Shown here in pieces: positions 30,687 to 46,814 of a stretch of DNA of 46,814 nt. The position numbers were made by a program, and so were the translations under genes. Positions within the stretch are counted from its first letter, which is position 1; the number at the start of each line of letters is the position of its first letter. The stretch is from Acidiferrobacteraceae bacterium. GTDB lineage: Bacteria; Pseudomonadota; Gammaproteobacteria; Acidiferrobacterales; SZUA-150. The notes beneath the pieces are model-generated. The model saw nothing but the letters and a program-made list of their open reading frames with translations, was not told the DNA's origin and did not search any database. The stretch covers positions 1-46,814 of the forward strand of contig QIGL01000025.1 in assembly GCA_003228915.1 (NCBI GenBank). Reading direction: 5' to 3'.

Positions 30687-30763
30687 CGGGGTGTAGCTCA
30701 GCCTGGTAGAGTACTGCCTTCGGGAGGCAGGAGCCGAGAGTTCGAATCTCTCCACCCCGACCA
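30687..30763 (+). tRNA. tRNA-Pro (anticodon CGG)
   Basis: 77 nt with a complete cloverleaf. Acceptor CGGGGTG pairs with CACCCCG, and the D-stem is GCTC/GAGT. The anticodon stem CTGCC/GGCAG holds loop TTCGGGA, giving anticodon CGG. The T-stem GAGAG/CTCTC carries TTCGAAT, and CCA is encoded. It reads CCG codons. Its 3' 46 bases are repeated exactly at 32265-32310. Confidence 0.96.
30718..30763 (+). repeat. attL-type site (tRNA-Pro 3' half)
   Basis: 46 bp from the anticodon loop to CCA, inside the tRNA gene. Identical to 32265-32310; identity stops right after CCA. Confidence 0.8.
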
Positions 30764-32122: not shown

Positions 32123-32238
32123 AGTCACTCCCTTTAAGAAGAACGGAAATATTAATGAAAAACACGCCTACTCACTATAACTATTTGTGGCAACAGTGTG
32201 ACACAAAGGTAGCGAATGGCGCTATTACTCTTTATTCC

Positions 32239-32255
32239 TAGTCTTTCCTGATCTT
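32239..32255 (+). repeat. 17-bp direct repeat, right copy
   Basis: TAGTCTTTCCTGATCTT, nine bases before the right attachment repeat. Same orientation as 30839-30855. Possibly integrase arm-type sites or a trace of an earlier integration. Confidence 0.75.
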
Positions 32256-32264
32256 ACACTTTTA

Positions 32265-32310
32265 CTTCGGGAGGCAGGAGCCGAGAGTTCGAATCTCTCC
32301 ACCCCGACCA
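32265..32310 (+). repeat. attR-type site (duplicate of tRNA-Pro 3' half)
   Basis: A perfect 46-bp copy of 30718-30763, from the anticodon loop to CCA, without the 5' half of a tRNA. It lies 10 bases from the end of the polysaccharide locus. Confidence 0.8.
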
Positions 32311-32319
32311 TTAATTTAC

Positions 32320-33870
32320 CTAAGATCTGGTTTTATCTTTTTTGAAAATCAGCAATTCATCTCCGAACTGATTTTTCAACCTCTTTGCAGGCGGGCTGCC
32401 TACCAGGTTAATGATTTCCTTTTCCTGCTCTTTGTATTTTTTCTTGATACTAATAGCGATATAATCAAAATTCCTTCCTTGATTATTTTTTAATATTTTG
32501 TACACGTCTTCCCGTTCGTATGGTCGTACATTTACCCATGCGTCTACATCAACACGCTTGTACGGATTTCGGCCTGCGTAGTAAGTTATTGCTATGTCGG
32601 TACTTAATAATTTCTCATCTGATTTAATTTGTTGTTTTATCCAGAGGCCGCCATCTTTGTAATGGTTCTTACCAGTAAATGTAGCCAGGCTCGGTAGCGA
32701 CGCCACGATAATTAAAAGAACAGTGACAGGAAAAAACCACCGGATGACAACATTGTTGTTTCTGCTATCTTTCCAGTCCTGGTACATATTTGAAAGAATA
32801 AAGGGCACTGGCAGCAAAACGGTTAAGCTGAGCGCCAGTGGGAAGCGACCGGTAATGAAATAATATTTTAGCAGTGCGCCAGTTAAAATTAGTAATTGGA
32901 TAATAATAAGTATTATCCATGCATTCCTGACCCTGTCTTCACTAAATATTACATACTTGCGCCAACTATAAATTAATATAAATGTGTAAGCCAAAGTAAT
33001 ACTTTGAATCACTTCACTAAAAAGAATGATTATTAATGTAGCAAATAAGGCAACAGGGGCATAACTTTCAGAATATTGCGTCAACAAAGTTCGCATCTGT
33101 TCTAGTCGCACTGAGTACTCAGCAATAGAACCTGCCATAAATCTATTTGCAAGATCGAATATACCCTCTATTCCTGAGTAATTAGCATTATTCAGACGAC
33201 TCCCCGCAAACCACCATGCCAATAATAAAAATGTGGCAAGTAATACAAGACCGAACGTTGCGCCGATCTTGATGCGTTTTTTTCTTGAGTCTGCAAATAC
33301 AAACCAGGAAATAAAAGGCAGACTAATTAATATAGCAATCGCTTCAATTCGGAATAATGCAGCAATAACAAGCAATATAGACCAGAGGACAGGTAAGTAC
33401 CATTCCGGCTTGACAAGATGCCTGAAAAAAACAAACAGGCTCAGCATATAAAATGCCAGGTACCCGAAGTCGCGACTAATAAAAGAACGATAACGATTAA
33501 TACCTGAAAATAAAAGTATAACAATTACAGCAAATATAATGACCCGTTGATCCCCGCCAAGTAACCTGACAGTAGAAATAAAACTTATAGTAATAATTAT
33601 TGCCAGGATAATGTTTAACAGGTATGCAATTACCTCGCTAGACAAGCCCGATACATTACTCAAACCAGCTAACATGAATGAGTAAAATGGCCAACGATAA
33701 ATATTGAACGCATTTGAATAGTTGCCATCCTGTATTGTCTCGGAAACCAGGATATATAAAAAACCATCGTTATTAATCACAGGGTCAATATAAATCGACC
33801 AGAATGAAAATAGCAGGCTAATACCTCCTGCGATTATTAGGATGTTTCGGTTAGTTATTTGATGATTCAT
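32320..33870 (-). CDS. Multi-spanning membrane glycosyltransferase (GT-C fold, PMT/ArnT-like)
   Basis: 516 residues with about 10-12 membrane helices. The first periplasmic loop has INNDGFLYI, an acidic residue placed as in GT-C polyprenyl-phosphate-sugar transferases, and a second loop begins YRSFISRDFGYLAFYML. The C-terminal ~110 residues form a soluble domain with DIAITYYAGRNPYKRVDVDAW. Such proteins transfer a sugar from a lipid carrier to a glycan or protein on the outer face of the inner membrane. It is the last gene of the polysaccharide operon. Specific donor and acceptor cannot be read. The class call is moderate, from topology and the DG/RD loop motifs. Confidence 0.75.
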   Translation of the reverse strand: MNHQITNRNILIIAGGISLLFSFWSIYIDPVINNDGFLYILVSETIQDGNYSNAFNIYRWPFYSFMLAGLSNVSGLSSEVIAYLLNIILAIIITISFISTVRLLGGDQRVIIFAVIVILLFSGINRYRSFISRDFGYLAFYMLSLFVFFRHLVKPEWYLPVLWSILLVIAALFRIEAIAILISLPFISWFVFADSRKKRIKIGATFGLVLLATFLLLAWWFAGSRLNNANYSGIEGIFDLANRFMAGSIAEYSVRLEQMRTLLTQYSESYAPVALFATLIIILFSEVIQSITLAYTFILIYSWRKYVIFSEDRVRNAWIILIIIQLLILTGALLKYYFITGRFPLALSLTVLLPVPFILSNMYQDWKDSRNNNVVIRWFFPVTVLLIIVASLPSLATFTGKNHYKDGGLWIKQQIKSDEKLLSTDIAITYYAGRNPYKRVDVDAWVNVRPYEREDVYKILKNNQGRNFDYIAISIKKKYKEQEKEIINLVGSPPAKRLKNQFGDELLIFKKDKTRS

Positions 33871-33913
33871 TAATATAATTTTACTTTGTATACTGCTGGC
33901 TCATAATGCTACC

Positions 33914-35113
33914 TCATAGTTGTTTTCTTTTTTCTATGAGGCATTTATATTCCTCAACAAGTAGAGCATTTACAATATTTGCATCATATTCCTGTAAACA
34001 GCGTAACCGTGCCGCTTCTCCTAGTCGTGTGCGAAGGGCCTGATCTTGAATCAGCTTGCTTAATCCTTTTTCAAGTTCTCGAGAATTAGCGCGCGGAACC
34101 AGTAAACCCGTTACACCATCAACTACGGCATCGACTAACCCGGGAATGCATGTACCCAGTGTTGGTATTCCCATGGCAGCTGCTTCAATCACTACTGTAC
34201 CAAACCCTTCTCTATGACTTGGTAAACAGAGAATATCGGATATTGCCATATAAGATTCTGGGTCATCCCGATAACCCAGAGCATGCAAACCCGGTCTTTG
34301 TTTTATCGCCTTCTGCACAGCTGTATCACCACTCACTTCCACTGGTCCCACAAGAAGAAGTTCCACAGCAATCCCCCGGTCTCGCAAGGCACCAAACGCC
34401 TCCATTAACTCGATGATACCCTTGTCCCGGGTGATTCGCCCGATGAAAATCAAAACAACCGAATGTGGCTCCAGTCCTATTGAATTTCGCAGTAATTTTT
34501 TTTTATTATTATCGATACAATCTCGCCTAAAGTGATCAGTGTCTACACCTGCCAGGGATCCTGCGCCTAAAACACTTATGTTATTCGCGCTAGTTATCTT
34601 CTCGCTAACTAAAAAATCCATCTGGCTCTTACTATCTGCATAACATCTTGTATTTAGTTTCGCGATAATGCGATCAGAGTTTTTTACAATTTTCCTGCTC
34701 ATGCCATGCATAGTCACCCATCGTTGGCCCGTGAATGTGTGTAATCGAATTTTTATCCCAGCCATCATGCCCGCAATTACCGCTAGCAGTCCTGCCTTGG
34801 GTGTTGTTGTATGTACAATCTTGAACTGGTTTTTTTTGAATATCAAAAATAGATGAAATATCGCGATAAGGTCCCTTATCGGCGCGGGTTCTCGCTCTAT
34901 ACCAACAACAATGTGATTCAAACGATCTCCGAATTCCAATTGTGACAACTGCGTGCCTTCTGATGAAATAAGCGTGATGTCCATACCAGTGGAATGCAGA
35001 TATTTAATTTGCTGTTTTAGGTTGGTTACAAGGAAGAAAGGAACTGATGTGACTATGGCAATTTTAGTGTTTTTAATTGCAATATTACCGGATTCATTTT
35101 TCGAATGTATCAT
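33914..35113 (-). CDS. GT4-family glycosyltransferase
   Basis: 399 residues, two Rossmann domains (GT-B). The N-terminal half is KIAIVTSVPFFLVTNLKQQI ... TTPKAGLLAVIAG. The C-terminal half is VVLIFIGRITRDKGIIELMEAFGALRDRG and HREGFGTVVIEAAAMGIP, with the EX7E pair that binds the nucleotide-sugar donor. The N-terminal pattern (VPFFL..Q, HTTTPKAG) is close to PglA/WbpY-type enzymes that extend undecaprenyl-linked glycans. A cytoplasmic, membrane-associated transferase of the locus; sugar specificity is unknown. Confidence 0.88.
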   Translation of the reverse strand: MIHSKNESGNIAIKNTKIAIVTSVPFFLVTNLKQQIKYLHSTGMDITLISSEGTQLSQLEFGDRLNHIVVGIEREPAPIRDLIAIFHLFLIFKKNQFKIVHTTTPKAGLLAVIAGMMAGIKIRLHTFTGQRWVTMHGMSRKIVKNSDRIIAKLNTRCYADSKSQMDFLVSEKITSANNISVLGAGSLAGVDTDHFRRDCIDNNKKKLLRNSIGLEPHSVVLIFIGRITRDKGIIELMEAFGALRDRGIAVELLLVGPVEVSGDTAVQKAIKQRPGLHALGYRDDPESYMAISDILCLPSHREGFGTVVIEAAAMGIPTLGTCIPGLVDAVVDGVTGLLVPRANSRELEKGLSKLIQDQALRTRLGEAARLRCLQEYDANIVNALLVEEYKCLIEKRKQL

Positions 35114-35150
35114 ACTGCTATAATAAACGTTATCGAGAAATTGGACGTGC

Positions 35151-36113
35151 CTAATTACCAGGTTTTTTAATATTCATGCTCATCCATTCTTTTACAAGCA
35201 CTTCAAGACCCTCTTCCATGCTAACTTTGTGTCTATACTCCAGTTCTTTCTCTATCTTGCTTATGTTATAGGAAACTCTTGTTGTAAGACCGTCTATACG
35301 ATGCTTGCCAAGAGGATATCCAGGCACCAAACCAAATAATAATGCTGCTATCCTGAATGGTAGTATCGGTAATCTGATAAAATTGTTTTTTCTTTCAAGT
35401 CCCCTGCTAATTACTTCAATAAATTCTTCCATAGTGCGCCGATCACATACATTATAGACTTTACTCTGATTGTTGCCGGCCTTGGTACATAACATCAGCG
35501 CGTGTATCAGGTTATCCACATGGATATAATTAGTAGAGGCGCCTGCTGCACCAATGTAAAAAAAAACTCCCTTGTCAATATAGGATATCAGCCTGTATAT
35601 ATCACGGTCGATTGCATTCACCCCCATCACTTTACACGGCCTCATAATAGTGTATCTAAACCCACCATCTCGAGAGGATTCCTTGATAATATGCTCTGCC
35701 TCTGTTTTTGTTCGCTCGTATAAATTCTCTGGTTTTTCCTTCGAAGATTCATCAATCACGCCCCTCGCAAGCGAACCATAAACACCCACACTGCTAAGAT
35801 AGACAAAGTGGTCAACCTTTCCCCGGGCACAGGATGCAAGATTTTTCGTGCCTTGTACGTTCACTTCATTCATTTTAGCTTCGTTTCTTGTTTCAGAAGC
35901 ACAGTGAAACAATACGTTAACTTCCTGGACAAATTTTTCCAGACAACGATTTTTGCCGCTTAAATCACCTGCAACTACGCTGAGATTATTCGATTTTACA
36001 GATATACGACTTTCTTCACGGGTAAGTGCTGTGACCGTATGACCTTCTTCCAAACATTTACTGAGGAGCTTGTGTCCTATACTGCCCGATGCTCCTGTAA
36101 TCCCGATTCTCAT
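35151..36113 (-). CDS. NAD(P)-dependent sugar epimerase/dehydratase (extended SDR)
   Basis: 320 residues. GITGASGSIGHKLL carries the GxxGxxG dinucleotide loop, YLSSVGVYGSL the serine region and YERTKTEAEHI the catalytic YxxxK. The C-terminal substrate domain includes NYIHVDNLIHAL and VYNVCDRRTMEEFI. Full-length for the family. It probably reduces or epimerises a nucleotide-sugar or lipid-linked sugar of this locus; the exact reaction is open. It lies between the FkbM methyltransferase and the GT4 gene, all on one strand with short spacers. Confidence 0.88.
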   Translation of the reverse strand: MRIGITGASGSIGHKLLSKCLEEGHTVTALTREESRISVKSNNLSVVAGDLSGKNRCLEKFVQEVNVLFHCASETRNEAKMNEVNVQGTKNLASCARGKVDHFVYLSSVGVYGSLARGVIDESSKEKPENLYERTKTEAEHIIKESSRDGGFRYTIMRPCKVMGVNAIDRDIYRLISYIDKGVFFYIGAAGASTNYIHVDNLIHALMLCTKAGNNQSKVYNVCDRRTMEEFIEVISRGLERKNNFIRLPILPFRIAALLFGLVPGYPLGKHRIDGLTTRVSYNISKIEKELEYRHKVSMEEGLEVLVKEWMSMNIKKPGN

Positions 36114-36137
36114 ATGTGATGGCTGTTTTTTCTAATG

Positions 36138-37061
36138 CTAGGACTTTTGTAGACCAATTAACTGTATCCCTAGCAATTTCAGAACTCTGTTGGCAACGCG
36201 AATGATAAAAGTAGCAATTCCTCTGCGCCTTAAAAGTGATTTGTGAAAACTCTCAACTGACTCTATGTCCTCTTCTTCAAGAAATCTTTTGAATTGCTTG
36301 ACACATACCGGAAGCAGATCAATATGTCCATAAAGTGCCACAATAGCAATATACTTAAGTGCTTTGCTGCGGGCATGCTCCGTTGAGAGGTTATTTAGCA
36401 TGCTTCCAAAAACTTCTGGTGTGCGCAGAAATAATCCATCTCCAAAAATAACCTGGCCAAACAGGGTAAAATTGTTTCGCTCCCATCTGCATATATTCAC
36501 AAAATCAAAGAATTCAAAATTCTTTTTTGCCAGGTATGAACACACATCACCAAAAAGTGACTGATTTTTATATAGCTGTAAAAACTCTACTTCTATTTCC
36601 AGGCCGATAAACGGGCTATTTAGAATTGAATCTCCTCCTTTCAGGATATCCAACTCAGTTCCTTGTGTGTCAATCTTGATAAAATCATATTCAACCCCTC
36701 TTTCAAGTAAACATTTATCAAGAGTTGTAACTTTAATTGGTTCTGATTTTATTACTTCGAATCGTTTCGAATCAGGAAACCTGGACACAAACTCAAAATG
36801 TGGATTTAACAGCGACGATACTCTTGGCTCCTGACACAAGTTCAGGCTGGCTGTTTCTTCTTTCTCACCCAGGCCCATCGAAATTACTTCTTCGACGTGA
36901 GCCAAAGATTCAATCTTGTTTCTTGATCTCTCATCTGGCTCGAAAAGTAATGACCTGATATTTGAATCAATTGAGCGCCAACGAGGCTCAAGACCTCCTC
37001 TTGCTCCTACGTCTATTAACCCAATTTTATTTTTCCCAAGAAACGCTTTTAGCGCTTTCAT
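36138..37061 (-). CDS. FkbM-family methyltransferase
   Basis: 307 residues. GLIDVGARGGLEPRW is the SAM-binding opening of this subgroup, LLFEPDERSRNKIESL the acidic strand, and TTLDKCLLERGVEYDFIKIDTQGTELDILKGG (the FkbM signature, ending DTQGTE) the core motif. The C-terminal ~120 residues are an extra helical part. Such enzymes O-methylate sugars in polysaccharides. A second methyltransferase of another type is at 43094-43981, so the glycan may carry more than one methyl group. Confidence 0.88.
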   Translation of the reverse strand: MKALKAFLGKNKIGLIDVGARGGLEPRWRSIDSNIRSLLFEPDERSRNKIESLAHVEEVISMGLGEKEETASLNLCQEPRVSSLLNPHFEFVSRFPDSKRFEVIKSEPIKVTTLDKCLLERGVEYDFIKIDTQGTELDILKGGDSILNSPFIGLEIEVEFLQLYKNQSLFGDVCSYLAKKNFEFFDFVNICRWERNNFTLFGQVIFGDGLFLRTPEVFGSMLNNLSTEHARSKALKYIAIVALYGHIDLLPVCVKQFKRFLEEEDIESVESFHKSLLRRRGIATFIIRVANRVLKLLGIQLIGLQKS

Positions 37062-37198
37062 CGATATTCCTTTTGTCTAAAGACTCTCAACTTGTTAGTA
37101 AATGACGACAGCAACATAAATAATTATTATCCGGATTATGAAACCTCCCCTGGATAATAGCCCTATACTTGCTGACCTTGTTAAATACCAAAGAATTG

Positions 37199-38137
37199 TT
37201 ATTCATTTATAATATCAAAAAGGGATCTTCCAGACATCAATATAACTAAACCTCTTAAAAGACCAATTAGCTGTCCAGTAGAAAATATTATTGAATTTGG
37301 CTTAAGCGTTAATATACCCAATGCCGTTCTATATCCTATTTGACAAACTGACATCCAGTAAAAAGAAGCGAGTGACAGTTCCTTGTGTAAACTTACAAAG
37401 TACATTCGCCAGAGCACCGTATTTTTTCCTCGATAAATGTTTTTAAAATTAAAATACTGTTCGATAGGAATATCATCATGAAAAACCCTGGCTTGCTTGC
37501 ATACATACATAGGATATTTCTTGCTTACCGGGTAGCTAAATATAATATCCTCACATATCGCCCATTTGCTTTTTATCGCCAGGTGTGAAAATTCTTTTAT
37601 TATTTTCGCGCGCCAAACAGTAGCTCCCCCACACAACCAACTGGTTTTAACGCTTTGGTTATTTGCAGAGACTGGAACATTGTACCCTGAATTGAGAATT
37701 GCCCCGGGCTGATCAGATCCCATTCCACTAACTCTATGAAATAAACTATTTCTATATTCTGGATTATTGGTTATGGTGAATCCAATCCCGGCGGTTTCTT
37801 TTTCCTTAAGATTCCAGCAATTAATCATTCTTTCTATAGCATCACTCTCAAATACAATATCATCATCTATATATGCCACTAAAAGAAATTTTTCCCCAAC
37901 AAGCTCAAGACCATGGTTTCGTTGCGCTATTTGTCCTGTTATATCCGTATCTCGATATATTATGTTTAGTTTATCGAGATATTTTGAAACTACATTTTTA
38001 CTTTCTCCCCCGCTATCTATAATAATCAACACGCCTGGCTGCTTTACTTGGCTCACCATGCTTTCAAGCAGATTTTTTATTTTATGAGGACGTCCCTTAG
38101 TAGGGATTAAAATGGCCAATTCGCTTTCTAAATACAT
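37199..38137 (-). CDS. GT2-family glycosyltransferase
   Basis: 312 residues, GT-A fold. LAILIPTKGRPHKIKNLLES is the donor-binding opening, and AYIDDDIVFESDAIERM carries the metal-binding DxD. KTSWLCGGATVWRA and an acidic CEDIIFSYPVSKKY follow, in place of the usual ED motif. The hydrophobic C-terminal helix region suggests membrane association. Substrates unknown. About 55 bases from the upstream 566-residue gene. Confidence 0.87.
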   Translation of the reverse strand: MYLESELAILIPTKGRPHKIKNLLESMVSQVKQPGVLIIIDSGGESKNVVSKYLDKLNIIYRDTDITGQIAQRNHGLELVGEKFLLVAYIDDDIVFESDAIERMINCWNLKEKETAGIGFTITNNPEYRNSLFHRVSGMGSDQPGAILNSGYNVPVSANNQSVKTSWLCGGATVWRAKIIKEFSHLAIKSKWAICEDIIFSYPVSKKYPMYVCKQARVFHDDIPIEQYFNFKNIYRGKNTVLWRMYFVSLHKELSLASFYWMSVCQIGYRTALGILTLKPNSIIFSTGQLIGLLRGLVILMSGRSLFDIINE

Positions 38138-38192
38138 CTGTCCTGCTTTTCATAGAATTTCACGACAAAGTCCTCCCCGGTTGCAATAATGT

Positions 38193-39893
38193 TCATTGTC
38201 TGTTTTCGACCTTCTGAACAAGATCGTTCAACCACTGACCATTATCTCCTTCAAAGTAATCTTCAATTTCAAGACTAGTCGGCTCGGTATTTTCTATATT
38301 TTCCTCAATAAAGCTTTGTAGTTCTTTCGCATTATAAACAACTCCCCACCTTCCATTCTGCACAAGACCCTCCAATGGGTTCATCGTTGGACCTGTGTGG
38401 CTGCCAACTATTGCTACAGGTATACCCAATACAGCACCCTCCATACATACACTCGATGCCTCGGAAACCAGAATACCTGCTGTCTCAAGCAAATCTCCAA
38501 TTCGTTTGCTGGTAAATATTAGCTTGTTATCAGAATTTTTAATCAGTTTTCTAATTTTCTTTTGATTATGTGCAGGATGATATTTTACAACAAACTCTGT
38601 CTCTGGCAGGGTGCCTGCCACTTTTTCGCAAAGCGTTAGTATTTCATTGCAGGAAGGAAGGAAGAGCGGTAGAGCCACGACTACCCTGTTTTCTGGTTTC
38701 TGCTGACTCCTTTCATTATAGAGCCGAATTATATCCTTGAACCTGTAAGCCGGTGCTATTGAAACATAAAGTTTTTCACACTGAGCCAATTTTTCTTCTT
38801 TATAGGATTTACCTATTACACACATCTCTTGCGGCAAGGTCTCTCCTGTCAACTCATAGGGTGTTGGATTCACACTGAGATAATATCCCGGCACAATAAA
38901 TCCCTGATAACCCACTACATAGGTTTCCGGATGGTACTTTTTAATTGCTAAATTAAGCGCTCTGTCAATAACCTGATTTTCATTCCAGTCAATAACTAGT
39001 GCTAATTTCTTTTTTTGTTTAGATAGTCTCCGTAAAAAGTAATACAACAACAAGCTGTTCAGTAATGTTGTAGTGGAATATTCTCCATTTCTCTCCTCTA
39101 AAATAATTTTAGATATATTTAAACCATCCCATTCCGGATATTTATTTATTTTAAATGGTATGGAGTAGTTTTTTATTAGCGCCTTTAAGTAATCTCCTGC
39201 TTTTAAATAATATTCTTTGAGGAGCACTTTCTCGTCGGTTCTATAAGTTCTCCAGTAGGCTAAGATAAACTGAAGTGGCGTGCGTATATGATAAAATGTT
39301 GGCATAAGAACAACATCATACTTGTCAGTTATGTGAGCTACGTTATCAAGTAGACCTGGATAATTTCTGGATAGCAGGCCGCTATCCGCCTTATAACTAT
39401 CGGGGTAAAGAAAGGTGTCAATAAGTATTGCGGGTTTGGCGTCTGGCCTGATCGACCTGGGTATCAGCTTTGGCCATAGCCACATATTAAGCACCAGGTA
39501 CAGGCTTTTAAATACATTTGTTGCCAGCAAGTAAAAAAGATTATTTTTGTAGTTTCTCTTAAGAACTACTCTTGGAGCCAGGGAATGTTTGGCCATTATT
39601 TGATCTACCGCTTCATACATACCCGCGCTATCAACTATTATAACGCTGATACTCTCATTTTTGGCTAGCAGGTGTTTAAGTAGGCTTAATTTACATAATT
39701 TATCGTAGAGTGTACCTGCAAATGTGTTTCTGCTGGTAACACGTGCCAACCACACAAGACCCTCAACTTTATTATGCTTAACTAGCTCACCGATGTAAGC
39801 ATTAAAACGCTTTCGTGAATGCCTCTCAATTTCTGTCAGTAATTTTGCTTGTTCTGTACCTAGAGATCCATTTTTTGCCAGATTGAGCTTCAC
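38193..39893 (-). CDS. Surface-carbohydrate biosynthesis protein, probable GT-B transferase
   Basis: 566 residues; family not certain. The C-terminal half (~400-540) reads like GT-B capsule or glycerophosphotransferase-type enzymes: VVVALPLFLPSCNEILTLCE, ETEFVVKYHPAHNQKKIRKL, then ILVSEASSVCMEGAVLGIPV, a donor-site loop, and GVVYNAKELQSF. The N-terminal half has a short hydrophobic segment (FYLLATNVFKSLYLVLNMWL) and many basic residues. I recall a TIGR04326 'surface carbohydrate biosynthesis' family of this kind, but cannot confirm membership. The start is GTG 39893, overlapping the HAD stop (GTGA), so the genes are coupled. Confidence 0.65.
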   Translation of the reverse strand: MKLNLAKNGSLGTEQAKLLTEIERHSRKRFNAYIGELVKHNKVEGLVWLARVTSRNTFAGTLYDKLCKLSLLKHLLAKNESISVIIVDSAGMYEAVDQIMAKHSLAPRVVLKRNYKNNLFYLLATNVFKSLYLVLNMWLWPKLIPRSIRPDAKPAILIDTFLYPDSYKADSGLLSRNYPGLLDNVAHITDKYDVVLMPTFYHIRTPLQFILAYWRTYRTDEKVLLKEYYLKAGDYLKALIKNYSIPFKINKYPEWDGLNISKIILEERNGEYSTTTLLNSLLLYYFLRRLSKQKKKLALVIDWNENQVIDRALNLAIKKYHPETYVVGYQGFIVPGYYLSVNPTPYELTGETLPQEMCVIGKSYKEEKLAQCEKLYVSIAPAYRFKDIIRLYNERSQQKPENRVVVALPLFLPSCNEILTLCEKVAGTLPETEFVVKYHPAHNQKKIRKLIKNSDNKLIFTSKRIGDLLETAGILVSEASSVCMEGAVLGIPVAIVGSHTGPTMNPLEGLVQNGRWGVVYNAKELQSFIEENIENTEPTSLEIEDYFEGDNGQWLNDLVQKVENRQ

Positions 39894-40567
39894 TTAAATA
39901 ATTCTGAGAAATCGGGTATTGCCAGAAATGCGCCTGATCGTTCTGATAATTTCTGCATAGCCTTGCCAACACCAATAAATTCTATACTGCTATTACTTGC
40001 TGCTTCCAGGTCTGTATTCGAGTCTCCAAAAAATAAACAATCCCATTTATTAACATCAAATGTTCCGATTAATTCTGCTAAATTACTCTCTTTGGTTAGA
40101 GGCGAGCCCAGAACCTCTGAAAAATATTTCGCCCACCCCTTTTCCTGCACAATCATTCTTATATCGTCTTGAGGCGTAGCAGAGTTAACGCAACAAATAT
40201 AATCCTGATTACAGTTTCTTTCCAGAAAGTCTATTGAACCTGATATCTCCCCTGACCCAATAACTTTACGATTCACCAGATTCGAAAATTTTCCAGACAT
40301 CTGGTCAATTTCCTGCTCTGATAAATTTAAGCCAAGATACTCCTGGTGATAATGAATAAATTTATCAGCTCTGGACATGCCGCCATTTTTTCTATGATGA
40401 TCTGCTACCCTGGATGCTACGCCCTTACCGTAACATAAATACATCTCATAGAATGCTTGTGTTTTGATCTCTACCGAATCTGCGAGCACTCCATCAAAAT
40501 CAAAAATTAGAAGTTTCTTTCCATTGATTAATTTCTCAACTTTTTCGAAATTTGAAATGTAAGTCAT
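39890..40567 (-). CDS. HAD-superfamily phosphatase
   Basis: 225 residues, cytosolic. Motif I is LLIFDFDGVLADSVEIK (nucleophile and acid/base Asp), motif II is the VNSAT region, and motif IV is CLFFGDSNTDLEAA. An alpha-helical cap lies between about 25 and 95, as in the phosphoglycolate-phosphatase subgroup. In this locus, next to an aldolase and a KdsB-like cytidylyltransferase, it could dephosphorylate a sugar-acid phosphate before CMP activation, the job of KdsC or NeuNAc-9-phosphatase. The role is inferred. Its start overlaps the cyclase stop (ATGA). Confidence 0.85.
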   Translation of the reverse strand: MTYISNFEKVEKLINGKKLLIFDFDGVLADSVEIKTQAFYEMYLCYGKGVASRVADHHRKNGGMSRADKFIHYHQEYLGLNLSEQEIDQMSGKFSNLVNRKVIGSGEISGSIDFLERNCNQDYICCVNSATPQDDIRMIVQEKGWAKYFSEVLGSPLTKESNLAELIGTFDVNKWDCLFFGDSNTDLEAASNSSIEFIGVGKAMQKLSERSGAFLAIPDFSELFK

Positions 40568-40978
40568 CTTCCTTTTAACTTACCAATTACAGTTATTGGC
40601 GACCCGTCTGAATTTATATAGCGATACGGCAGTGCTATGACCTGATCAAGCACTATGTCACTGGGTATGCCTGCAAGAGATAGATCTTCCATAATGATAA
40701 TCCCGTTTCCGAGGAATTCTTTATGAGCCTCCCTGCCGGTAGTTCTATGCGTAAGACTTGATATAGAAATAGTATCCATTCCGATTGCCCTGAATGACGG
40801 GAAAGATGTCTGAAAAAATCTGAATAAGTCAGGAGAAAATCCAGGAGCATGTTTCCAGTATTTCTCCCTGCTTCTGAAAGCTTCCATCCCTGTTCGTATT
40901 AATACTATGTCTGCATCATTTATATCAGGTGTAATTGATTTTTCAATGATTTTACTATCTATAATCGTATCATCGGTT
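40564..40978 (-). pseudogene. C-terminal part of a cyclase-family hydrolase, separated by a frameshift
   Basis: Translation in this frame gives ITPDINDADIVLIRTGMEAF, then SFPSFRAIGMDTISISSLTH, EFLGNGIIIMEDLSLAGIPS and ITVIGKLKGR, the standard second half of cyclase/kynurenine-formamidase-like proteins. The first half, with the metal site, is in another frame at the end of the gene upstream (40970-42094). The match resumes where the first frame stops (TGA at ~40972), after a net +1 base near 40975-40995. An ATG at 40887 is present in the fragment but is not the natural start. Real mutation and sequencing error cannot be told apart. Confidence 0.85.
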
Positions 40979-42094
40979 ATAAAGAACCGGTTGCCGGAAT
41001 ATCCAGTCTTCGGCCTCGTATTGTTCTATGGTTTTGCCGCCTGGAATGAAGTGGAGAGGAGCATCAATATGAGTACCGCTATGATTTGAAATTTTCAACT
41101 CTACCGTGTTGCATGAATCACCGCAGTCCTGTCTTTTTACCGGAGAGATACTGATTCCCGTATCCCCTCCATAGCAGGGAGTAGTAGGTTCGTTTATATG
41201 GGACATCCATACCCAACTATTTTCCGATTCCTGACTTATTTCTTCCACAAGCTCAAGTATCCCCTGTCCTACATCAATAAATTCACTTGGTACAAGTTTC
41301 TTTGCCGTTTGCGGTGTGTATCTGTATGGGGTCATAGTGTAGTGATCTCTCCCTATATGAGATGCATCAAAAACGACATTTTCTTTTCGTCCTGTAATCT
41401 CAAATATCATTGAAATAAGTTCGGATGAATTGAGTATTTGCGAGCCTGTTACTGTAATCGCAGAATTCCGATGCTCGTCATCCAGGATGTCTACGCTTAG
41501 ACGTGCGGCATCAAGAACATGGATATACTCGCGACGCTCTTTTCCAGTGCCAGAATAGTTCAGTTTTCCCTCGTTGATAACCTGCCTGATATACTTCCTG
41601 AGACCATTCCAGCTCTGGGATCGTGGGCCATATAAGGATCCGTATCTCAGAAATGTATATTCAATATCTGATTTCTCGCAATAGGCTTCCAGAATTGTTT
41701 CAACAGCCTGTTTGCTCGCACGATAAAATGAGCCATATGGGCTATACACATACATTGTTGACGCATAAACGAATCGTTTAACTTTTTCTTTAATTGCAGC
41801 TTCGATTGCAATGGTTGCGCCAATAATATTCAGTTGGATAGTATCGAACGGTCTATGTGATGCTTCACCAATATCTGCAATACCGGCATAGTGATAAACG
41901 TAGTCCACTCCACTCATCGCCTTCTCTACTGCCTCTCTGTCAAGGATATCGCCGATGACCATTTCTTGATCATTCCGCAGCCATGGTGACTCAACACGGT
42001 CAAATATAGTAACTGAATAACCTTTGCTACTAAGCATGTCGGCGGTATGGCTGCCAATAAACCCTGAGCCCCCGATTACCAATACCTTTTTCAT
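40970..42094 (-). CDS. NAD-dependent epimerase fused to the N-terminal half of a cyclase-family hydrolase
   Basis: 374 residues. Residues 1-~285 are an extended SDR: VIGGSGFIGSHTADML (GxxGxxG), VYHYAGIADIGE, YASTMYVYSPYGSFYRASKQ with the YxxxK pair, and REYIHVLDAARLSVDIL. From ~290, with no stop or spacer, a different family begins: VWMSHINEPTTPCYGGDTGI, then the metal motif HSGTHIDAPLHF at about 338-349, as in kynurenine-formamidase-like cyclases. The frame then breaks. The internal ATG at 41206 (MSHINEP) could once have been the cyclase start, but no ribosome-binding site was evident to me. The protein may act on a sugar-acid or lactone intermediate of the pathway; inferred only. Confidence 0.82.
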   Translation of the reverse strand: MKKVLVIGGSGFIGSHTADMLSSKGYSVTIFDRVESPWLRNDQEMVIGDILDREAVEKAMSGVDYVYHYAGIADIGEASHRPFDTIQLNIIGATIAIEAAIKEKVKRFVYASTMYVYSPYGSFYRASKQAVETILEAYCEKSDIEYTFLRYGSLYGPRSQSWNGLRKYIRQVINEGKLNYSGTGKERREYIHVLDAARLSVDILDDEHRNSAITVTGSQILNSSELISMIFEITGRKENVVFDASHIGRDHYTMTPYRYTPQTAKKLVPSEFIDVGQGILELVEEISQESENSWVWMSHINEPTTPCYGGDTGISISPVKRQDCGDSCNTVELKISNHSGTHIDAPLHFIPGGKTIEQYEAEDWIFRQPVLYNR

Positions 42095-42112
42095 TCTAAT
42101 CTACCACTCCAT

Positions 42113-43093
42113 CTAGAAAGATTCTTTCTGTACAAGATACTCTTCTTCCGGCACAAGACCTGTAAGCTTCTGTCCCTTCGAGAATCGTATCACCTCTTTA
42201 GTAGCTTCAATTTCCATGCTTGTTCTACAGTCAACTGACATTGACCCCATATGGGCTGTTAACAAACACCGATCTATCTCCCTTAGTGGGCCTGAATACG
42301 GTTCGTTTTCGAAAACATCGATAGCGGCACCGCCTAAATGTCCTCCCATCATTTCCTGGTACAAGCTGTCCTCATTAATGATTCCGCCACGTGAAGTATT
42401 AATAACAACGGCATCTGGTTTCATGGACCTGATCTGAACAGTTTGGATCATATTATAGGTCTCCGCGGTTAGCGGTAAATGCAAAGAGATGACATCAGAA
42501 CTTTCATATATTTCCGGCTTGGTTTTATACTCAACATTGGGGTATTGATCAAGATTCAAGTCAGTCCTTTTGTCATTCACCAGGATTTGCCTGCATTTGA
42601 ATCCGGAAAGCAGAGACAATACCCCTGTTCCAATTCTTCCAATACCTATTATACCTACCGTACATTCCGCCAGGCGTTTACCAAAATATCGATGCCAATC
42701 ACCATTGTGCATATTCATGTTTGAGACTTGAACAGAGCGCAACAAACTAAGCATCAAACCAATTGTTAATTCTGCAACTGCGGGACTTGGCGCATCAGGC
42801 GTATAGGAAACTTTAATCCCGCGTTTTTCTGCGCTGATCAAATCAACGCTATCTAACCCAATTCCAACCCGTGATATTATTTTAAGATTCTCGGCCCTGG
42901 ACAATACTTTATCGGTAATAGGCTCAGTACCGGCAATAATCGCATCAAATTCTGTTACCATTTCTGCCAGCTCGTCCTCCGTAAGTTTTTTGCCCAATGG
43001 ATTGATTGTAAAATCCAGACCAGCTTCCTCCAGCAAGTCGGTAGGCAAATGGTCTTTTTCCCCGAAAGGAACAGTTGTAATTAGTACTTTCAT
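42113..43093 (-). CDS. D-isomer-specific 2-hydroxyacid dehydrogenase
   Basis: 326 residues. VGIIGIGRIGTGVLSLLSGF is the NAD loop. The substrate/active-site triad is in VINTSRGGIINEDSL (Arg), AIDVFENEPYSGPL (Glu) and CLLTAHMGSMSVDC (His). EPITDKVLSRAENLKIISRVGIGLDSVD is the catalytic-domain start. It is close in layout to phosphoglycerate dehydrogenase-like enzymes without the regulatory ACT domain. In this setting a 2-keto/2-hydroxy acid intermediate is plausible, perhaps oxidised or reduced before or after the aldolase step. Adjoining gene starts one base away. Confidence 0.9.
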   Translation of the reverse strand: MKVLITTVPFGEKDHLPTDLLEEAGLDFTINPLGKKLTEDELAEMVTEFDAIIAGTEPITDKVLSRAENLKIISRVGIGLDSVDLISAEKRGIKVSYTPDAPSPAVAELTIGLMLSLLRSVQVSNMNMHNGDWHRYFGKRLAECTVGIIGIGRIGTGVLSLLSGFKCRQILVNDKRTDLNLDQYPNVEYKTKPEIYESSDVISLHLPLTAETYNMIQTVQIRSMKPDAVVINTSRGGIINEDSLYQEMMGGHLGGAAIDVFENEPYSGPLREIDRCLLTAHMGSMSVDCRTSMEIEATKEVIRFSKGQKLTGLVPEEEYLVQKESF

Positions 43094-43981
43094 TTACCAG
43101 CTATCATACCTGTCTGAAATACGGGAATCTTTCTTTAAGATGCACCCATAATAACCATCGAAGGCAAACTTTTTCCAAAGCAATTTCATAAATACTAAAG
43201 GATTATACGTAGGGTACATTCTAAATATTCTATCTTCTACAATTTCCCACCCGGAAAATCTGAAGAGCAGCCTCCAGTCATTGGGGTTAAGTTCAAATAT
43301 GTGCGTCTCTTCAGCGGTCATTTTTTTATTCATATTCCCTCTAATCTGATGCAACGCTACTTTACTTCTCTTCAGGTACGGTACAGTAATTATCAAATAA
43401 CTGGCATCACATGACTCGGATAAATTATGCAGAAAGTTTATAGGATCTAATAAGTGTTCCAGAGTTTCAAATAACAAAAATACATCAACATTTTTATCCT
43501 TGAACTCTCGGTGCTTGATTAACTCTTCTGCTCGACACTCTATTGCTCTCAGCCCCTTGCTTCGTATTTTTTCTACTGCGATGGGATCTAAATTTACGGA
43601 TAGTGTATCCAGTTTTTTTCCAAGACTAATTTTCTCGTCTTGTAAATATATCAGGTGAGTTCCGGAGGAATCCCCAATATCGACAACATTAAGCCTGTCC
43701 TGATCTTTTAGCTTTAAGACGGCTTGAATTAGCGAAACCTGGAATGCGTGAAGCGTCCTGACCATCGCCTCCTGAAACACATCCAAAATCTCAAAATTTG
43801 TGTATTGTTTGGAAATGTCTGGTACAGCACTTTTGAGATTATTGAGAATTTCTCTATAGCCTTTTTCATAACTGGCGCTGTATATTGTAAGAGCAAAGAG
43901 TTTTTTAACTACATTTTTTATTGCCAACATTAACCACTCTCTCGCCCTTATGAAAACTCTTTGTGCATTAATTTTTATCAT
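43094..43981 (-). CDS. Class I SAM-dependent methyltransferase
   Basis: 295 residues. NVVDIGDSSGTHLIYLQ corresponds to SAM motif I, with a less usual DSSGTH instead of GxGxG; TLSVNLDPIAVEKI is the acidic strand, and DVFLLFETLEHLLDPINFL the FETLEHL motif of methyltransferase type 11/23 proteins. The N-terminal ~70 residues include a hydrophobic helix (ALTIYSASYEKG region). Substrate unknown, presumably a sugar of the locus. Its stop directly abuts the dehydrogenase start. Confidence 0.8.
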   Translation of the reverse strand: MIKINAQRVFIRAREWLMLAIKNVVKKLFALTIYSASYEKGYREILNNLKSAVPDISKQYTNFEILDVFQEAMVRTLHAFQVSLIQAVLKLKDQDRLNVVDIGDSSGTHLIYLQDEKISLGKKLDTLSVNLDPIAVEKIRSKGLRAIECRAEELIKHREFKDKNVDVFLLFETLEHLLDPINFLHNLSESCDASYLIITVPYLKRSKVALHQIRGNMNKKMTAEETHIFELNPNDWRLLFRFSGWEIVEDRIFRMYPTYNPLVFMKLLWKKFAFDGYYGCILKKDSRISDRYDSW

Positions 43982-44104
43982 TAACTATTTTATAAAATAA
44001 ATATTCTGAGGATTAGTGGCAATTATAGGATAATTTTTATAGACATGAATTAAATATAAAGAGTTGTACCCCAATGCTATTAATTCCAGACAACATCACT
44101 ATCT

Positions 44105-44875
44105 TTAATCTAAATATTGGGTCATCAGAGTATCGTTTACCATTAATTCCTCTACTCTTTTCCTGTCTTCTTCAGTATCAACACTAAAAGAAAATTCACT
44201 TGTGTGAATCATTCTTACACTTTCTCCATTTTCAATAATCCTTAGCATATCAACGGACTCAATTCGTTCGAGACTTGTTTCTTCGAGATTATTAAATTTC
44301 AACAAATAGTCTCGTCTAAACGGAATAATGCATACCTGTTTTAACATTGGCACATTACCCGAAAATTTTTTTCTTGATGGTATCGGTTCTCGGGAAAAGT
44401 AGATGGCGTTATTATCATTACCAATTACCACCTTAACCTCATTTGGATCATTAAATTCTTCAATTGTCTTCATATGTGCCGCAAGATTTACCACATTCAC
44501 ATTGGAATCTGAACGTAGCGGTGCAATTGATTCCGAAACCATTTTTGGCGTTACCATGGGCTCATCCCCTTGAACCATTACTACAATATCTACTTCCTCG
44601 CCCAAGCTTTTTTCGACTTTGAGCATTGCTTCCGCGGTCCGATCCGTTGCACGCTCATGGCTATCCAGAGTCATAATCGCTGACCCGCCTATTGACTCAA
44701 TATAGTCTGCAATCACCTGGTCGCAGGTTGCTACGTACACTTCATCCAATTCACTGCACATTTTGGCTCGAAAATAACAGTGGCCAATCATGGGCACGCC
44801 ATGAATCTTCGCCATTGGTTTCCCCGGAAATCTTGAGGAGTCCATACGTGCCGGAATGATTCCGATAATTTTCAC
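44105..44875 (-). CDS. KdsB-like CMP-sugar-acid synthetase (cytidylyltransferase)
   Basis: 256 residues, cytosolic, GT-A-like fold. GIIPARMDSSRFPGKPMAKI is the nucleotide-binding opening of KdsB. VMVQGDEPMVTPKMV is the signature DEP motif. NEVKVVIGNDNNAIYFSREPIPS and the end SVDTEEDRKRVEEL also follow KdsB. The region after SREPIPS differs from classical KdsB, so the sugar may not be KDO. It activates a 3-deoxy-ulosonic acid with CTP to the CMP-sugar. The start is GTG 44875, overlapping the aldolase stop by one base (TAGTG), so the two genes are tightly coupled. Confidence 0.87.
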   Translation of the reverse strand: MKIIGIIPARMDSSRFPGKPMAKIHGVPMIGHCYFRAKMCSELDEVYVATCDQVIADYIESIGGSAIMTLDSHERATDRTAEAMLKVEKSLGEEVDIVVMVQGDEPMVTPKMVSESIAPLRSDSNVNVVNLAAHMKTIEEFNDPNEVKVVIGNDNNAIYFSREPIPSRKKFSGNVPMLKQVCIIPFRRDYLLKFNNLEETSLERIESVDMLRIIENGESVRMIHTSEFSFSVDTEEDRKRVEELMVNDTLMTQYLD

Positions 44876-45633
44876 TATTTCATTTCCTCAAACCATTTTG
44901 TACCGGATCTACACGCTGAATCCAACATTCTAATATCAAGACTATATGCGATAAAACCATAACCCTTTTTAACAGCATCCTCCAATTTGTCTTGTTCAGG
45001 CTCGATCACATGTATACCGGAAGGAATACTGCATTCTTTTGCCGCCGCATTTATTTTTTCTACTGCGGACAGAAAATACGGATTCTCAAACTCCCCTGGA
45101 ATACCCATTGAAGACGAGAGATCATATGGGCCAATAATAAATGCATCAATTCCTTCAACTGAAAATATTTCTCGTATATTCTCAACAGCCTCTATATGTT
45201 CAATTTGTACAACTATTATTGACTGATCTTTTTGCCATTCCAGGTAATCCCCAAATGAGGCGCCATAAGACTGCGCTCTTGCCAGGCCAACACCTCTTAC
45301 ACCTACAGGCGGATACTTTGTATACTTAACCGCATCTGATGCATCGCCTGCCGTTTTAACCATTGGAACAATGATTCCGTGTGAGCCTGCATCCATTACT
45401 CGCTTTATCTGGTTTTGATCATTAGAAGTAAGCCTCACTAATGGGGTTTTTCCGCTCAGGTTAATAATTCTTATCAACTCCTCTGCCTCACGGATAGTTA
45501 TCACGCTATGTTCCAGATCTACTGCAAGCCAGTCAAAACCGGCATTTGCCATAATCTCAGCTACTGCTGGATGTGCTAGCGTTATCCAGGACCCTATTGA
45601 TGTCACACCATTTTTTAATTTATTTTTAAGCAT
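44875..45633 (-). CDS. HpcH/HpaI-family aldolase (2-keto-3-deoxy-acid aldolase)
   Basis: 252 residues, a metal-dependent class II aldolase barrel. SIGSWITLAHPAVAEIMANA and FDWLAVDLEHSVI open the fold; IIVPMVKTAGDASDAVKYTK and YPPVGVRGVGLARAQSYG are the family's phosphate/pyruvate-binding segments. The metal ligands are Glu in VQIEHIEAVENI and Asp in IGPYDLSSSMGIPG. Such enzymes join or split pyruvate and an aldehyde to give 4-hydroxy-2-keto acids. In this operon a biosynthetic role, making a 3-deoxy-2-ulosonic acid for the following cytidylyltransferase, is plausible but inferred; sugar-acid catabolism is the alternative. Confidence 0.88.
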   Translation of the reverse strand: MLKNKLKNGVTSIGSWITLAHPAVAEIMANAGFDWLAVDLEHSVITIREAEELIRIINLSGKTPLVRLTSNDQNQIKRVMDAGSHGIIVPMVKTAGDASDAVKYTKYPPVGVRGVGLARAQSYGASFGDYLEWQKDQSIIVVQIEHIEAVENIREIFSVEGIDAFIIGPYDLSSSMGIPGEFENPYFLSAVEKINAAAKECSIPSGIHVIEPEQDKLEDAVKKGYGFIAYSLDIRMLDSACRSGTKWFEEMK

Positions 45634-45842
45634 AATTTTTCAGATTAATATTTTCTGTTTAAACGTCCAGTGCGCCAGCGATCACCGGCCACCTTTCAGC
45701 AGAACGTAGCCCGGTATTTGTATTTTAGTGATATCTAACACCAATCTAACATGCATGTATCGATCAATCATCCTATCCGAAAATATTACGAAAAATGATG
45801 CTGCCAACACCTATACAAAAATATAAATTGTCAGTCTTTGCC

Positions 45843-46814
45843 TTAACTCACTAATCCCTTTTTTTGCACAGCCTGATAGAGCACTCCCAAATTATTTCTG
45901 CTAACTACCCCAATTGATGTACCGTACGCAATGTAGGCCAACAAAATACCCAGCTTAAAAAGTATAATTGTCAGGACAGCGTTATTTTCATTGCTATAAA
46001 CGAGCGCTAAAACCATGCCAGCGGCAAATATAAAATATATCGAAAGCATTTTGCCAAATTGCCAATCTATTTTATGATACCGTTGGGCAACAATAAGTGA
46101 CACTACATTTGACAGGATGGCCGTAAGAAGCGCACCCCACGCTGCACCCAAAGCGCCCCACTTCATTACAAGCGGGATCATCACCAGCACAGATACAACC
46201 AAGTACATTATAGAGAGTATGGAAATCAGCGCAGTCCTCTTGGCATATACCAGCTGTTTTCCTGTCACCTTCCCGGGAAATTGAACAGCATAAAACGCCA
46301 CCAATATAATCATAATCTCAGCAGCAGCAGCATACTCGCTACCCAATACATAATAAACAATCTCCTGGCTGAACAGTACTACTGACAAAGCAAACAATGT
46401 GGAGATATAGAGAAACGTTGTCAGGTACCCGCCAATCTGCTGTTTTTTATTTGACTCTTCCGAGAACAGCCTCTTATATACTTCAGGTGCAAATACATTT
46501 TGAAGTACTGTCATAAAATAGAAAACAAAATAGGCGACGCGTTGGGCAACCGCATAAATACCGACATTTCCAAGCGTGCCCATAATTCGTATTAGATACT
46601 TGTCCAATTGTGAACTAAAGGTTCCAACCAATATTCTGGGCGTCAGGGGATAAGCAATTTTAATCACTTCAAGAAACACAGGATAGTTTATACTTGGTCT
46701 ATATCTTGTACTGAAAGTCACGGTAAGCAGTACCGCGCCGATTGTTCCACTTATTACCAGTGCATACAAAACCCCGACCGGGCCTGTCTTGACAACTACG
46801 ACAAAATAAATACC
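45843..46814 (-). CDS. Wzx-type polysaccharide flippase (5' end outside the window)
   Basis: The frame is open to the window edge; the internal TTG at 46769 is not a likely start, since GIYFVVVV precedes it in frame. At least 323 residues are visible, with about nine hydrophobic helices. PSINYPVFLEVIKIAYPLTP, then SSQLDKYLIRIMGTLGNVGI, AVAQRVAYFVFYFMTVLQNV and FAPEVYKRLF are typical of MOP-superfamily O-antigen/capsule flippases. It would carry lipid-linked repeat units outward. Transcribed in the direction of the downstream genes and likely near the head of this operon. Confidence 0.85.
   Translation of the reverse strand, partial: GIYFVVVVKTGPVGVLYALVISGTIGAVLLTVTFSTRYRPSINYPVFLEVIKIAYPLTPRILVGTFSSQLDKYLIRIMGTLGNVGIYAVAQRVAYFVFYFMTVLQNVFAPEVYKRLFSEESNKKQQIGGYLTTFLYISTLFALSVVLFSQEIVYYVLGSEYAAAAEIMIILVAFYAVQFPGKVTGKQLVYAKRTALISILSIMYLVVSVLVMIPLVMKWGALGAAWGALLTAILSNVVSLIVAQRYHKIDWQFGKMLSIYFIFAAGMVLALVYSNENNAVLTIILFKLGILLAYIAYGTSIGVVSRNNLGVLYQAVQKKGLVS

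What the first reader, a model, noticed from the sequence alone, without database searches (positions are those of the whole stretch)
39890..45633. Possible new route to a CMP-activated ulosonic acid
The sequence shows, in transcription order, a HpcH/HpaI aldolase, a KdsB-like cytidylyltransferase coupled to it by a one-base overlap (TAGTG), a methyltransferase, a D-2-hydroxyacid dehydrogenase, an epimerase fused to a metal-dependent cyclase-family hydrolase, and a HAD phosphatase. Classical KDO, sialic and related pathways use a PEP-dependent synthase (KdsA or NeuB type), KdsC-type phosphatase and a cytidylyltransferase. Here no KdsA/NeuB-like gene is visible, and a pyruvate-type aldolase takes that place, with two extra sugar-acid-type activities. 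The inference is a 3-deoxy-ulosonic or ulosaric acid that is not KDO, built by an alternative chemistry. The rest of the polysaccharide locus beyond the window could alter this reading.
Basis: partly seen in the sequence, partly recalled or inferred. Interest (0 to 1): 0.75.

Follow-up and report, generated by a model that had tools for sequence, protein, structure and literature searches.

The report
New-style route to CMP-activated sugar acid
A bacterial surface-sugar gene cluster carries an uncommon, widely scattered set of enzymes that very probably makes an activated acidic sugar other than the standard one (Kdo), using a pyruvate-type aldolase instead of the usual PEP-using synthase, but the exact sugar is still unknown.

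Summary
The gene set is real, but the cyclase half of the "epimerase-cyclase fusion" is broken by a frameshift near 40,978. The aldolase belongs to a clade (support 100/99) separate from HpaI/GarL-type aldolases. Every member with readable flanks sits beside a cytidylyltransferase, KdsB-like or NeuA-type. The KdsB-like enzyme differs from Kdo enzymes at 10 fixed positions. The genome makes Kdo elsewhere, with canonical pyrG-kdsA-eno and lpxK-kdsB, and has no neuB. One complete genome carries the module while lacking kdsA, canonical kdsB and waaA. The aldolase is optional. A lactonase is nearly always available: in the module as a cyclase-family hydrolase or a true 6-phosphogluconolactonase, or elsewhere in the genome (7/7 versus 4/4, with two unresolved genomes). 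I infer that a sugar phosphate is oxidised through a lactone and acid to a 2-keto acid, dephosphorylated, extended by the aldolase in this subset, and CMP-activated for a surface polysaccharide. The substrate, the order of steps and the product are inferred. New variant of a known kind.

The parts
44875..45633 (-). HpcH/HpaI-type metal-dependent pyruvate aldolase (Ald)
   Evidence: PF03328 4e-38; below the HpaI/GarL/YfaU equivalog cut-offs; catalytic E41, H42, R67, E145, D171 invariant in the clade (residues as in PMC8560999); own clade 100/99
44105..44875 (-). KdsB-like cytidylyltransferase (Cyt), GTG start overlapping the Ald stop by one base
   Evidence: PRK13368 317 bits; nearest solved structure E. 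coli capsule-specific CMP-Kdo synthetase; 10 fixed differences from Kdo enzymes
43094..43981 (-). SAM methyltransferase, shared only with L004 (58%); accessory
   Evidence: PF13489 6e-8
42113..43093 (-). D-2-hydroxyacid dehydrogenase (HADH), core; catalytic Arg, Glu and His kept, phosphoglycerate-dehydrogenase cut-off not reached
   Evidence: PF02826 1.5e-48; TIGR01327 222.7 bits versus cut-off 454; alignment; fused to a cytidylyltransferase in L080
41220..42094 (-). Extended SDR (Epi), core; YxxxK active site; Ser/Thr in place of the Asn of the 'RYxNxYGPR' motif seen in the NDP-sugar epimerase hit
   Evidence: PF01370 3.5e-43; orthologues 40-67% identical; AlphaFold2 model pLDDT 90; best fold match UDP-glucose 4-epimerase Z 32.7
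40970..41220 (-). N-terminal half of a cyclase-family (PF04199) metal hydrolase fused in frame to the SDR; metal motif HSGTHIDAPLH intact; ends at a stop after a frameshift near 40978
   Evidence: PF04199 1.9e-10, 297-368; frames
40564..40980 (-). C-terminal half of the same hydrolase, +1 frame (ORF 40887-40564), stop overlapping the HAD start (ATGA)
   Evidence: tblastn to the intact cyclase of L037 48-50%; PF04199 second half over cut-off
39890..40567 (-). HAD phosphatase, core
   Evidence: PF13419 5.8e-14; 31-38% orthologues in the module loci
38193..39893 (-). Putative GT-B glycosyltransferase overlapping the HAD gene by 4 bases; candidate transferase for the CMP-sugar
   Evidence: weak TIGR04326/TIGR04396/BFO_1060 matches; homologues in L006, L018, L023, L040; low-confidence GT-B model pLDDT 59
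45843..46814 (-). C-terminal part of a flippase (Wzx-like), also directly upstream of Ald in L004; runs off the contig
   Evidence: ORF open at the end; L004 34%

Best explanation
The locus is a copy of a widely but patchily distributed module that makes a CMP-activated acidic sugar other than Kdo (a 2-ulosonic or ulosaric acid) for a surface polysaccharide. Core: HADH, SDR (Epi), HAD phosphatase and a CMP-sugar synthetase. In the subset that includes the window, a dedicated HpcH/HpaI aldolase is translationally coupled to a KdsB-like synthetase. Most likely chemistry, inferred: (1) the SDR oxidises C1 of an aldose phosphate to a lactone; (2) a cyclase-family hydrolase, or a 6-phosphogluconolactonase in other clusters, opens the lactone to a phospho-sugar acid; (3) HADH oxidises the 2-hydroxyl to a 2-keto acid; (4) HAD removes the phosphate; (5) in this subset the aldolase forms a C-C bond with pyruvate or hydroxypyruvate, taking the chemical role that KdsA or NeuB has elsewhere; (6) Cyt couples the ulosonic acid to CMP; (7) the adjacent GT-B enzyme transfers it. 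Shown: gene content, conservation, clade structure, independence from Kdo, a lactonase available in 11 of 13 assessable genomes. Inferred: substrates, order of steps, product.
For: Module conserved: Ald+Cyt+HADH+Epi+HAD in window, L018, L022 (a compact operon), L023, L038; with a NeuA-type synthetase instead of KdsB-like in L008 (Dehalococcoidia) and L019 (Acuticoccus plasmid). Ald clade 100/99, all members with readable flank beside a cytidylyltransferase; the other clade has none. Cyt differs from three Kdo enzymes at 10 fixed sites including SGT(D/E)R->R(A/C)(T/S)xR, HxGIY->QxxII, LEQLR->VDMxR. Kdo made elsewhere; no NeuB. Complete genome G376 has the module but no kdsA over cut-off, no waaA and no canonical kdsB; G801 and G804 also lack kdsA and waaA. 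Cytidylyltransferase-HADH fusion (598 aa) in L080. Lactonase link: PGL inside the module in L022, L040, L041, L042 (three tested exceed the TIGR01198 cut-off), chance 1.3e-6; cyclase in window, L037, L008; genomes with a module lactonase have no other PGL (7/7), those without have one elsewhere (4/4 resolved), Fisher 0.003, or 0.021 with two unresolved genomes counted against. Precedents: PF04199 includes a lactone hydrolase and esterases (PMC5341072), SDR-type glucose-6-phosphate dehydrogenase (PMC8506132), G6PD-6PGL gene fusion in Giardia (PMC6165198), HpcH aldolases accept pyruvate, hydroxypyruvate and some ketones (PMC7610986).
Against: The SDR's fold neighbours are NDP-sugar epimerases and dehydratases, so it may epimerise rather than oxidise. 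HADH and Epi also occur with NeuB (L044) or transketolase halves (L043, L045), so their product may be an aldehyde precursor. Several lactonase-bearing genomes are 76-82% complete, so absence of other PGLs is weak there, and the lactonase pattern was found after looking. The window's own cyclase is frameshifted. How the aldolase connects to the oxidative arm is not resolved. No enzyme has been assayed and no product is known.
Confidence: 0.5

Rival explanations
1. Simple substitution: Ald replaces KdsA/NeuB, HAD replaces KdsC, Cyt is KdsB-like; the SDR and HADH tailor the aldehyde precursor. The product is a 3-deoxy-ulosonic or ulosaric acid.
For: Ald and Cyt are adjacent in nearly all KdsB-like loci (two genes apart in L023), also where SDR and HAD are absent (L005-L007); NeuB stands beside the trio in L044; NeuA-type or KdsB-like synthetases interchange.
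Against: The same core occurs with no aldolase, NeuB or KdsA nearby in L039, L040, L042, L080, L081; it does not explain the lactonase pattern.
Confidence: 0.3
2. Kdo redundancy: the cluster makes extra CMP-Kdo for the polysaccharide, with Cyt as a KpsU-like capsule copy and kdsA serving from elsewhere.
For: The closest solved relative of Cyt is E. coli KpsU; kdsA exists in the genome.
Against: KpsU keeps the residues that Cyt has lost; the module occurs in genomes without kdsA or waaA; it would leave HADH, SDR and lactonase unexplained.
Confidence: 0.06
3. Catabolic or accidental neighbourhood: aldolase, dehydrogenase and cyclase form a sugar-acid degradation set inserted into a polysaccharide locus.
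For: Each family has catabolic members.
Against: Recurrent linkage to cytidylyltransferases across phyla, with the clade split from the catabolic aldolases; cytidylyltransferase-HADH fusion; neighbouring glycosyltransferases and flippases.
Confidence: 0.04
4. Branched product: HADH's 2-keto sugar acid is the ketone acceptor for pyruvate in Ald, giving a branched dicarboxylic ulosonic acid.
For: Some HpcH aldolases accept ketones as acceptors (PMC7610986); it would link the oxidative arm and the aldolase in one chain.
Against: No direct evidence; the ketones accepted so far are small.
Confidence: 0.07

Closest known systems
Kdo pathway (KdsD-KdsA-KdsC-KdsB)
   Same: KdsB-like cytidylyltransferase, a phosphatase, end product a CMP-ulosonic acid (inferred here)
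   Different: No PEP-dependent synthase in the module, an HpcH aldolase instead; HAD_2-type phosphatase instead of KdsC; Cyt lacks residues fixed in Kdo enzymes; extra HADH, SDR and lactonase
Nonulosonic acid pathways (NeuB/NeuA: sialic, legionaminic, pseudaminic acid)
   Same: Some loci of the same module use NeuA-type synthetases; L044 has a NeuB beside the trio
   Different: No NeuB in this genome; no UDP-sugar 2-epimerase or aminotransferase set in the window
HpaI / GarL / YfaU-RhmA pyruvate aldolases
   Same: Family PF03328, same metal and pyruvate-binding residues
   Different: Separate clade, biosynthetic neighbourhood, below all equivalog cut-offs
Oxidative pentose-phosphate start (G6PD + 6-phosphogluconolactonase), including SDR-type G6PD and G6PD-6PGL fusion
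   Same: Proposed dehydrogenase-to-lactone-to-acid logic; true PGLs occur in sister modules
   Different: Dehydrogenase is a different SDR family with unknown substrate; followed by a 2-hydroxyacid dehydrogenase and CMP transfer
Leisingera plasmid cluster: HMGL-type aldolase + KdsB-like + HAD (L025)
   Same: Another pyruvate-type aldolase beside a KdsB-like enzyme and a HAD
   Different: Unrelated aldolase family, no HADH/SDR; its KdsB-like enzyme keeps the GTDR motif

Membership tests
Kdo biosynthesis (KdsA/KdsB/KdsC) | PEP-dependent KdsA in the same gene set | tested here: not met
   None in the window; the genome's kdsA is on another contig between pyrG and eno
Kdo biosynthesis (KdsA/KdsB/KdsC) | Cytidylyltransferase with residues shared by Kdo enzymes | tested here: not met
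   10 fixed differences against KpsU, H. influenzae KdsB and the genome's own KdsB
Kdo biosynthesis (KdsA/KdsB/KdsC) | KdsC-type phosphatase | tested here: not met
   HAD_2 / phosphoglycolate-phosphatase-like; no KdsC model listed
Kdo biosynthesis (KdsA/KdsB/KdsC) | Enzyme uses Kdo as substrate | not testable with these tools
   needs an assay
Nonulosonic acid (NeuB-type) pathway | NeuB synthase in the genome | tested here: not met
   PF03102: no match in G000, which is 95.9% complete
HpcH/HpaI aldolase family (PF03328) | Domain match and catalytic Glu/His, Arg and metal-binding Glu, Asp | tested here: met
HpcH/HpaI aldolase family (PF03328) | Membership of a known catabolic equivalog (HpaI, GarL, YfaU) | tested here: not met
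   178, 162 and 141 bits against cut-offs 369, 407 and 441; separate clade
Phosphoglycerate dehydrogenase (SerA) | TIGR01327 cut-off | tested here: not met
   222.7 versus 454 bits
Cyclase-family hydrolase (PF04199) | HxGTHxDxPxH metal motif | tested here: met
   HSGTHIDAPLH in the window; motif as in PMC5341072
Cyclase-family hydrolase (PF04199) | Intact reading frame | tested here: not met
   frameshift near 40978; assembly error not excluded
NDP-sugar epimerase/dehydratase (extended SDR) | Fold | tested here: met
   Z 32.7, rmsd 2.5 over 281 residues to 4zrn
NDP-sugar epimerase/dehydratase (extended SDR) | Asn in the RYxNxYGPR motif (phosphate-binding; my recollection of the family) | tested here: not met
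   Ser or Thr in all 16 orthologues; what this means for the substrate is inference
SDR-type glucose-6-phosphate dehydrogenase (Azf) | NF041293 cut-off | tested here: not met
   42.8 versus 400 bits
6-phosphogluconolactonase (in sister modules) | TIGR01198 cut-off | tested here: met
   153, 132 and 196 bits versus 124.45 for L022, L042, L040; none in the window's genome

The most novel reading that the evidence does not exclude
A family of pathways in which the 2-ulosonic acid is made by oxidising a sugar phosphate (lactone, acid, 2-keto acid) rather than by PEP condensation, is activated by interchangeable KdsB- or NeuA-type synthetases, and is optionally lengthened by a dedicated pyruvate-type aldolase, giving acidic sugars not yet described.
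Probability: 0.3. Interest if true: 0.75.

Novelty: new variant of a known kind. Interest (0 to 1): 0.55.

Why it matters
To my knowledge the known CMP-activated ulosonic acids (Kdo, sialic, legionaminic, pseudaminic) start with a PEP-using synthase. A recurrent module with a pyruvate-type aldolase, or with no condensing enzyme nearby, would point to a second biosynthetic logic for acidic surface sugars, found in Gammaproteobacteria, Alphaproteobacteria and Chloroflexota, including genomes with no Kdo machinery. It would also warn against annotating these KdsB-like genes as Kdo genes. The module is small (five genes in L022) and therefore directly testable in vitro.

Tried and rejected
Viral contigs: no aldolase relative. 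Open-access paper searches for the gene combination found nothing relevant (most subscription papers are not held). Structure of the neighbouring GT (38193-39893): low confidence (pLDDT 59), generic GT-B matches, donor not assignable. Programmed +1 frameshift in the cyclase (CTT TAT context): considered, no supporting evidence. Phosphonate link in L008 (PEP-mutase-like neighbours, judged by eye): not repeated elsewhere. Klebsiella K38 pentulosonic acid as a structural anchor: recalled, could not be tested here. Azospirillum HAD neighbours: unrelated context. L005-L007 share Ald-Cyt but not the SDR/HAD; treated as a second architecture. Families missing from the structural match list are not taken as excluded.
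Full report
Observation. The window is one whole contig (C35) of a 2.66-Mb genome, 95.9% complete. Between 45633 and 39890 on the - strand are an HpcH/HpaI aldolase (Ald), a KdsB-like cytidylyltransferase (Cyt) whose GTG start shares one base with the aldolase stop, a methyltransferase, a D-2-hydroxyacid dehydrogenase (HADH), an extended SDR (Epi) running into half a cyclase-family domain, and a HAD phosphatase. The last gene of the set overlaps a GT-like gene by four bases. In L037 the SDR and an intact cyclase are separate overlapping genes. Mutation and assembly error cannot be told apart without reads.

Is it Kdo? No, most likely. The genome has a canonical kdsA between pyrG and eno on another contig, a canonical kdsB beside lpxK, waaA and no neuB. 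Against three Kdo cytidylyltransferases (the genome's own, E. coli KpsU, H. influenzae KdsB), eight module enzymes show ten fixed differences, among them S75R, H180Q, Y184I and LEQ to VDM at 208-210. These positions are only presumed to be near the sugar: the cited work says that the C-terminal domain binds Kdo (PMC3149649). Genome G376, complete in one contig, has the compact module (L022) but no kdsA over cut-off, no waaA and no canonical kdsB; G801 and G804 (Dehalococcoidia, L008) also lack kdsA and waaA.

Is the aldolase specific? A collection-wide scan found five relatives at 56-64% identity, all beside a cytidylyltransferase, and seven at 33-38% with none. With further loci the tree gives the cytidylyltransferase-linked aldolases as one side of a branch with support 100/99. 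Residues that bind metal and pyruvate in HpaI (PMC8560999) are invariant in the six aligned members. The trait is rare and patchy: 2 of 57 genomes of the order and 3 of 369 of the class sample, own genome included. GC drops from about 0.50 to 0.38-0.42 after a tRNA-Pro gene, which fits horizontal gain.

What is the core? Searching with the SDR found it in 10 of 398 genomes of the phylum sample, own genome included, and in 3 of 400 of a Chloroflexota sample, counting the query's own genome. Reading the neighbourhoods shows HADH next to Epi almost everywhere, usually with HAD and a cytidylyltransferase. Ald is present in window, L004, L008, L018, L019, L022, L023, L038 and L041. The cytidylyltransferase is KdsB-like in most of these but NeuA-type in L008 and L019 (in L041 the contig ends before one is seen). 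L039, L040, L042, L080 and L081 have NeuA-type enzymes and no Ald, NeuB, KdsA or HMGL-type aldolase in the stretch read. In L080 cytidylyltransferase and HADH are one 598-aa protein. NeuB accompanies the trio in L044 and transketolase halves in L043 and L045.

A lactone step. Four loci (L022, L040, L041, L042) carry a 6-phosphogluconolactonase; the three tested exceed the curated cut-off. In L022 it overlaps the HAD gene and in L041 it abuts HADH. Window, L037 and L008 carry a cyclase-family hydrolase instead. Genome-wide, the seven genomes with a lactonase in the module have no other PGL-family gene, and the four with a PGL elsewhere have none in the module; G530 and G550 show neither, and L004 is cut by a run of N. 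The chance of four PGLs falling in these stretches is about 1e-6, and the complementarity has Fisher p 0.003, or 0.021 with the two unresolved genomes counted against. This pattern was noticed after looking, and some genomes are only 76-82% complete. PF04199 includes trans-dienelactone hydrolase and esterases (PMC5341072). An SDR-type glucose-6-phosphate dehydrogenase exists (PMC8506132). In Giardia G6PD is fused to 6PGL (PMC6165198), the same logic as the SDR-cyclase fusion here.

Mechanism proposed. Sugar phosphate to lactone (SDR), to acid (cyclase or PGL), to 2-keto acid (HADH), dephosphorylation (HAD), C-C bond formation with pyruvate or hydroxypyruvate by Ald in this subset, CMP activation (Cyt), transfer by the neighbouring GT-B enzyme. 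Steps are inferred. The weak points are the SDR, whose fold neighbours are NDP-sugar epimerases (pLDDT 90 model, Z 32.7) although the motif Asn is Ser or Thr in all 16 orthologues, and the unresolved link between the oxidative arm and the aldolase. HpcH aldolases can use hydroxypyruvate as donor and some ketones as acceptor (PMC7610986), so several links are chemically possible.

Verdict. A real and reproducible biosynthetic module for a non-Kdo, CMP-activated sugar acid; the aldolase-for-synthase idea is plausible but not established; the product is unknown. The open-access literature searched here did not describe the set. New variant of a known kind.

Noticed in passing
window 30687-31256: tRNA-Pro (cgg) marks the point where GC falls from about 0.50 to 0.38-0.42; the polysaccharide island 31256-46814 abuts it.
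   Followed up: partly
window 40960-40990: Frameshift in the cyclase; both halves stay conserved and the downstream half still overlaps the HAD start, so the break is recent or an assembly error.
   Followed up: partly
L006 16061-16360: A cyclase relic ending at the same region as the break in the window, directly before a GT gene.
   Followed up: no
L025 6664-9666 (Leisingera plasmid): HMGL-type 4-hydroxy-2-oxovalerate-aldolase-like protein beside a KdsB-like enzyme and a HAD: possibly another pyruvate-aldolase route to a CMP-sugar acid.
   Followed up: partly
L080 9580-11376 (Chloroflexota): 598-aa fusion of a NeuA-type cytidylyltransferase and a D-2-hydroxyacid dehydrogenase, with a second NeuA-type gene 0.4 kb upstream.
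   Followed up: partly
L005 8983-15962, L006 8998-16053: Ald-Cyt with Gfo/Idh, SDR, DHQ-synthase-like and HADH genes (plus a SIS-domain gene in L005): a second architecture around the same aldolase.
   Followed up: no
L039 7766-8941 and L040 11791-12957: Radical SAM/SPASM protein (50% identical between the two) inside aldolase-less versions of the module.
   Followed up: no
window 2009-10345 and 539-1495: 2778-aa RHS-like protein with many PKD-like repeats and a separate RHS-core ORF.
   Followed up: no
window 31256-32128: LAPAL-motif putative phage structural protein at the island edge.
   Followed up: no
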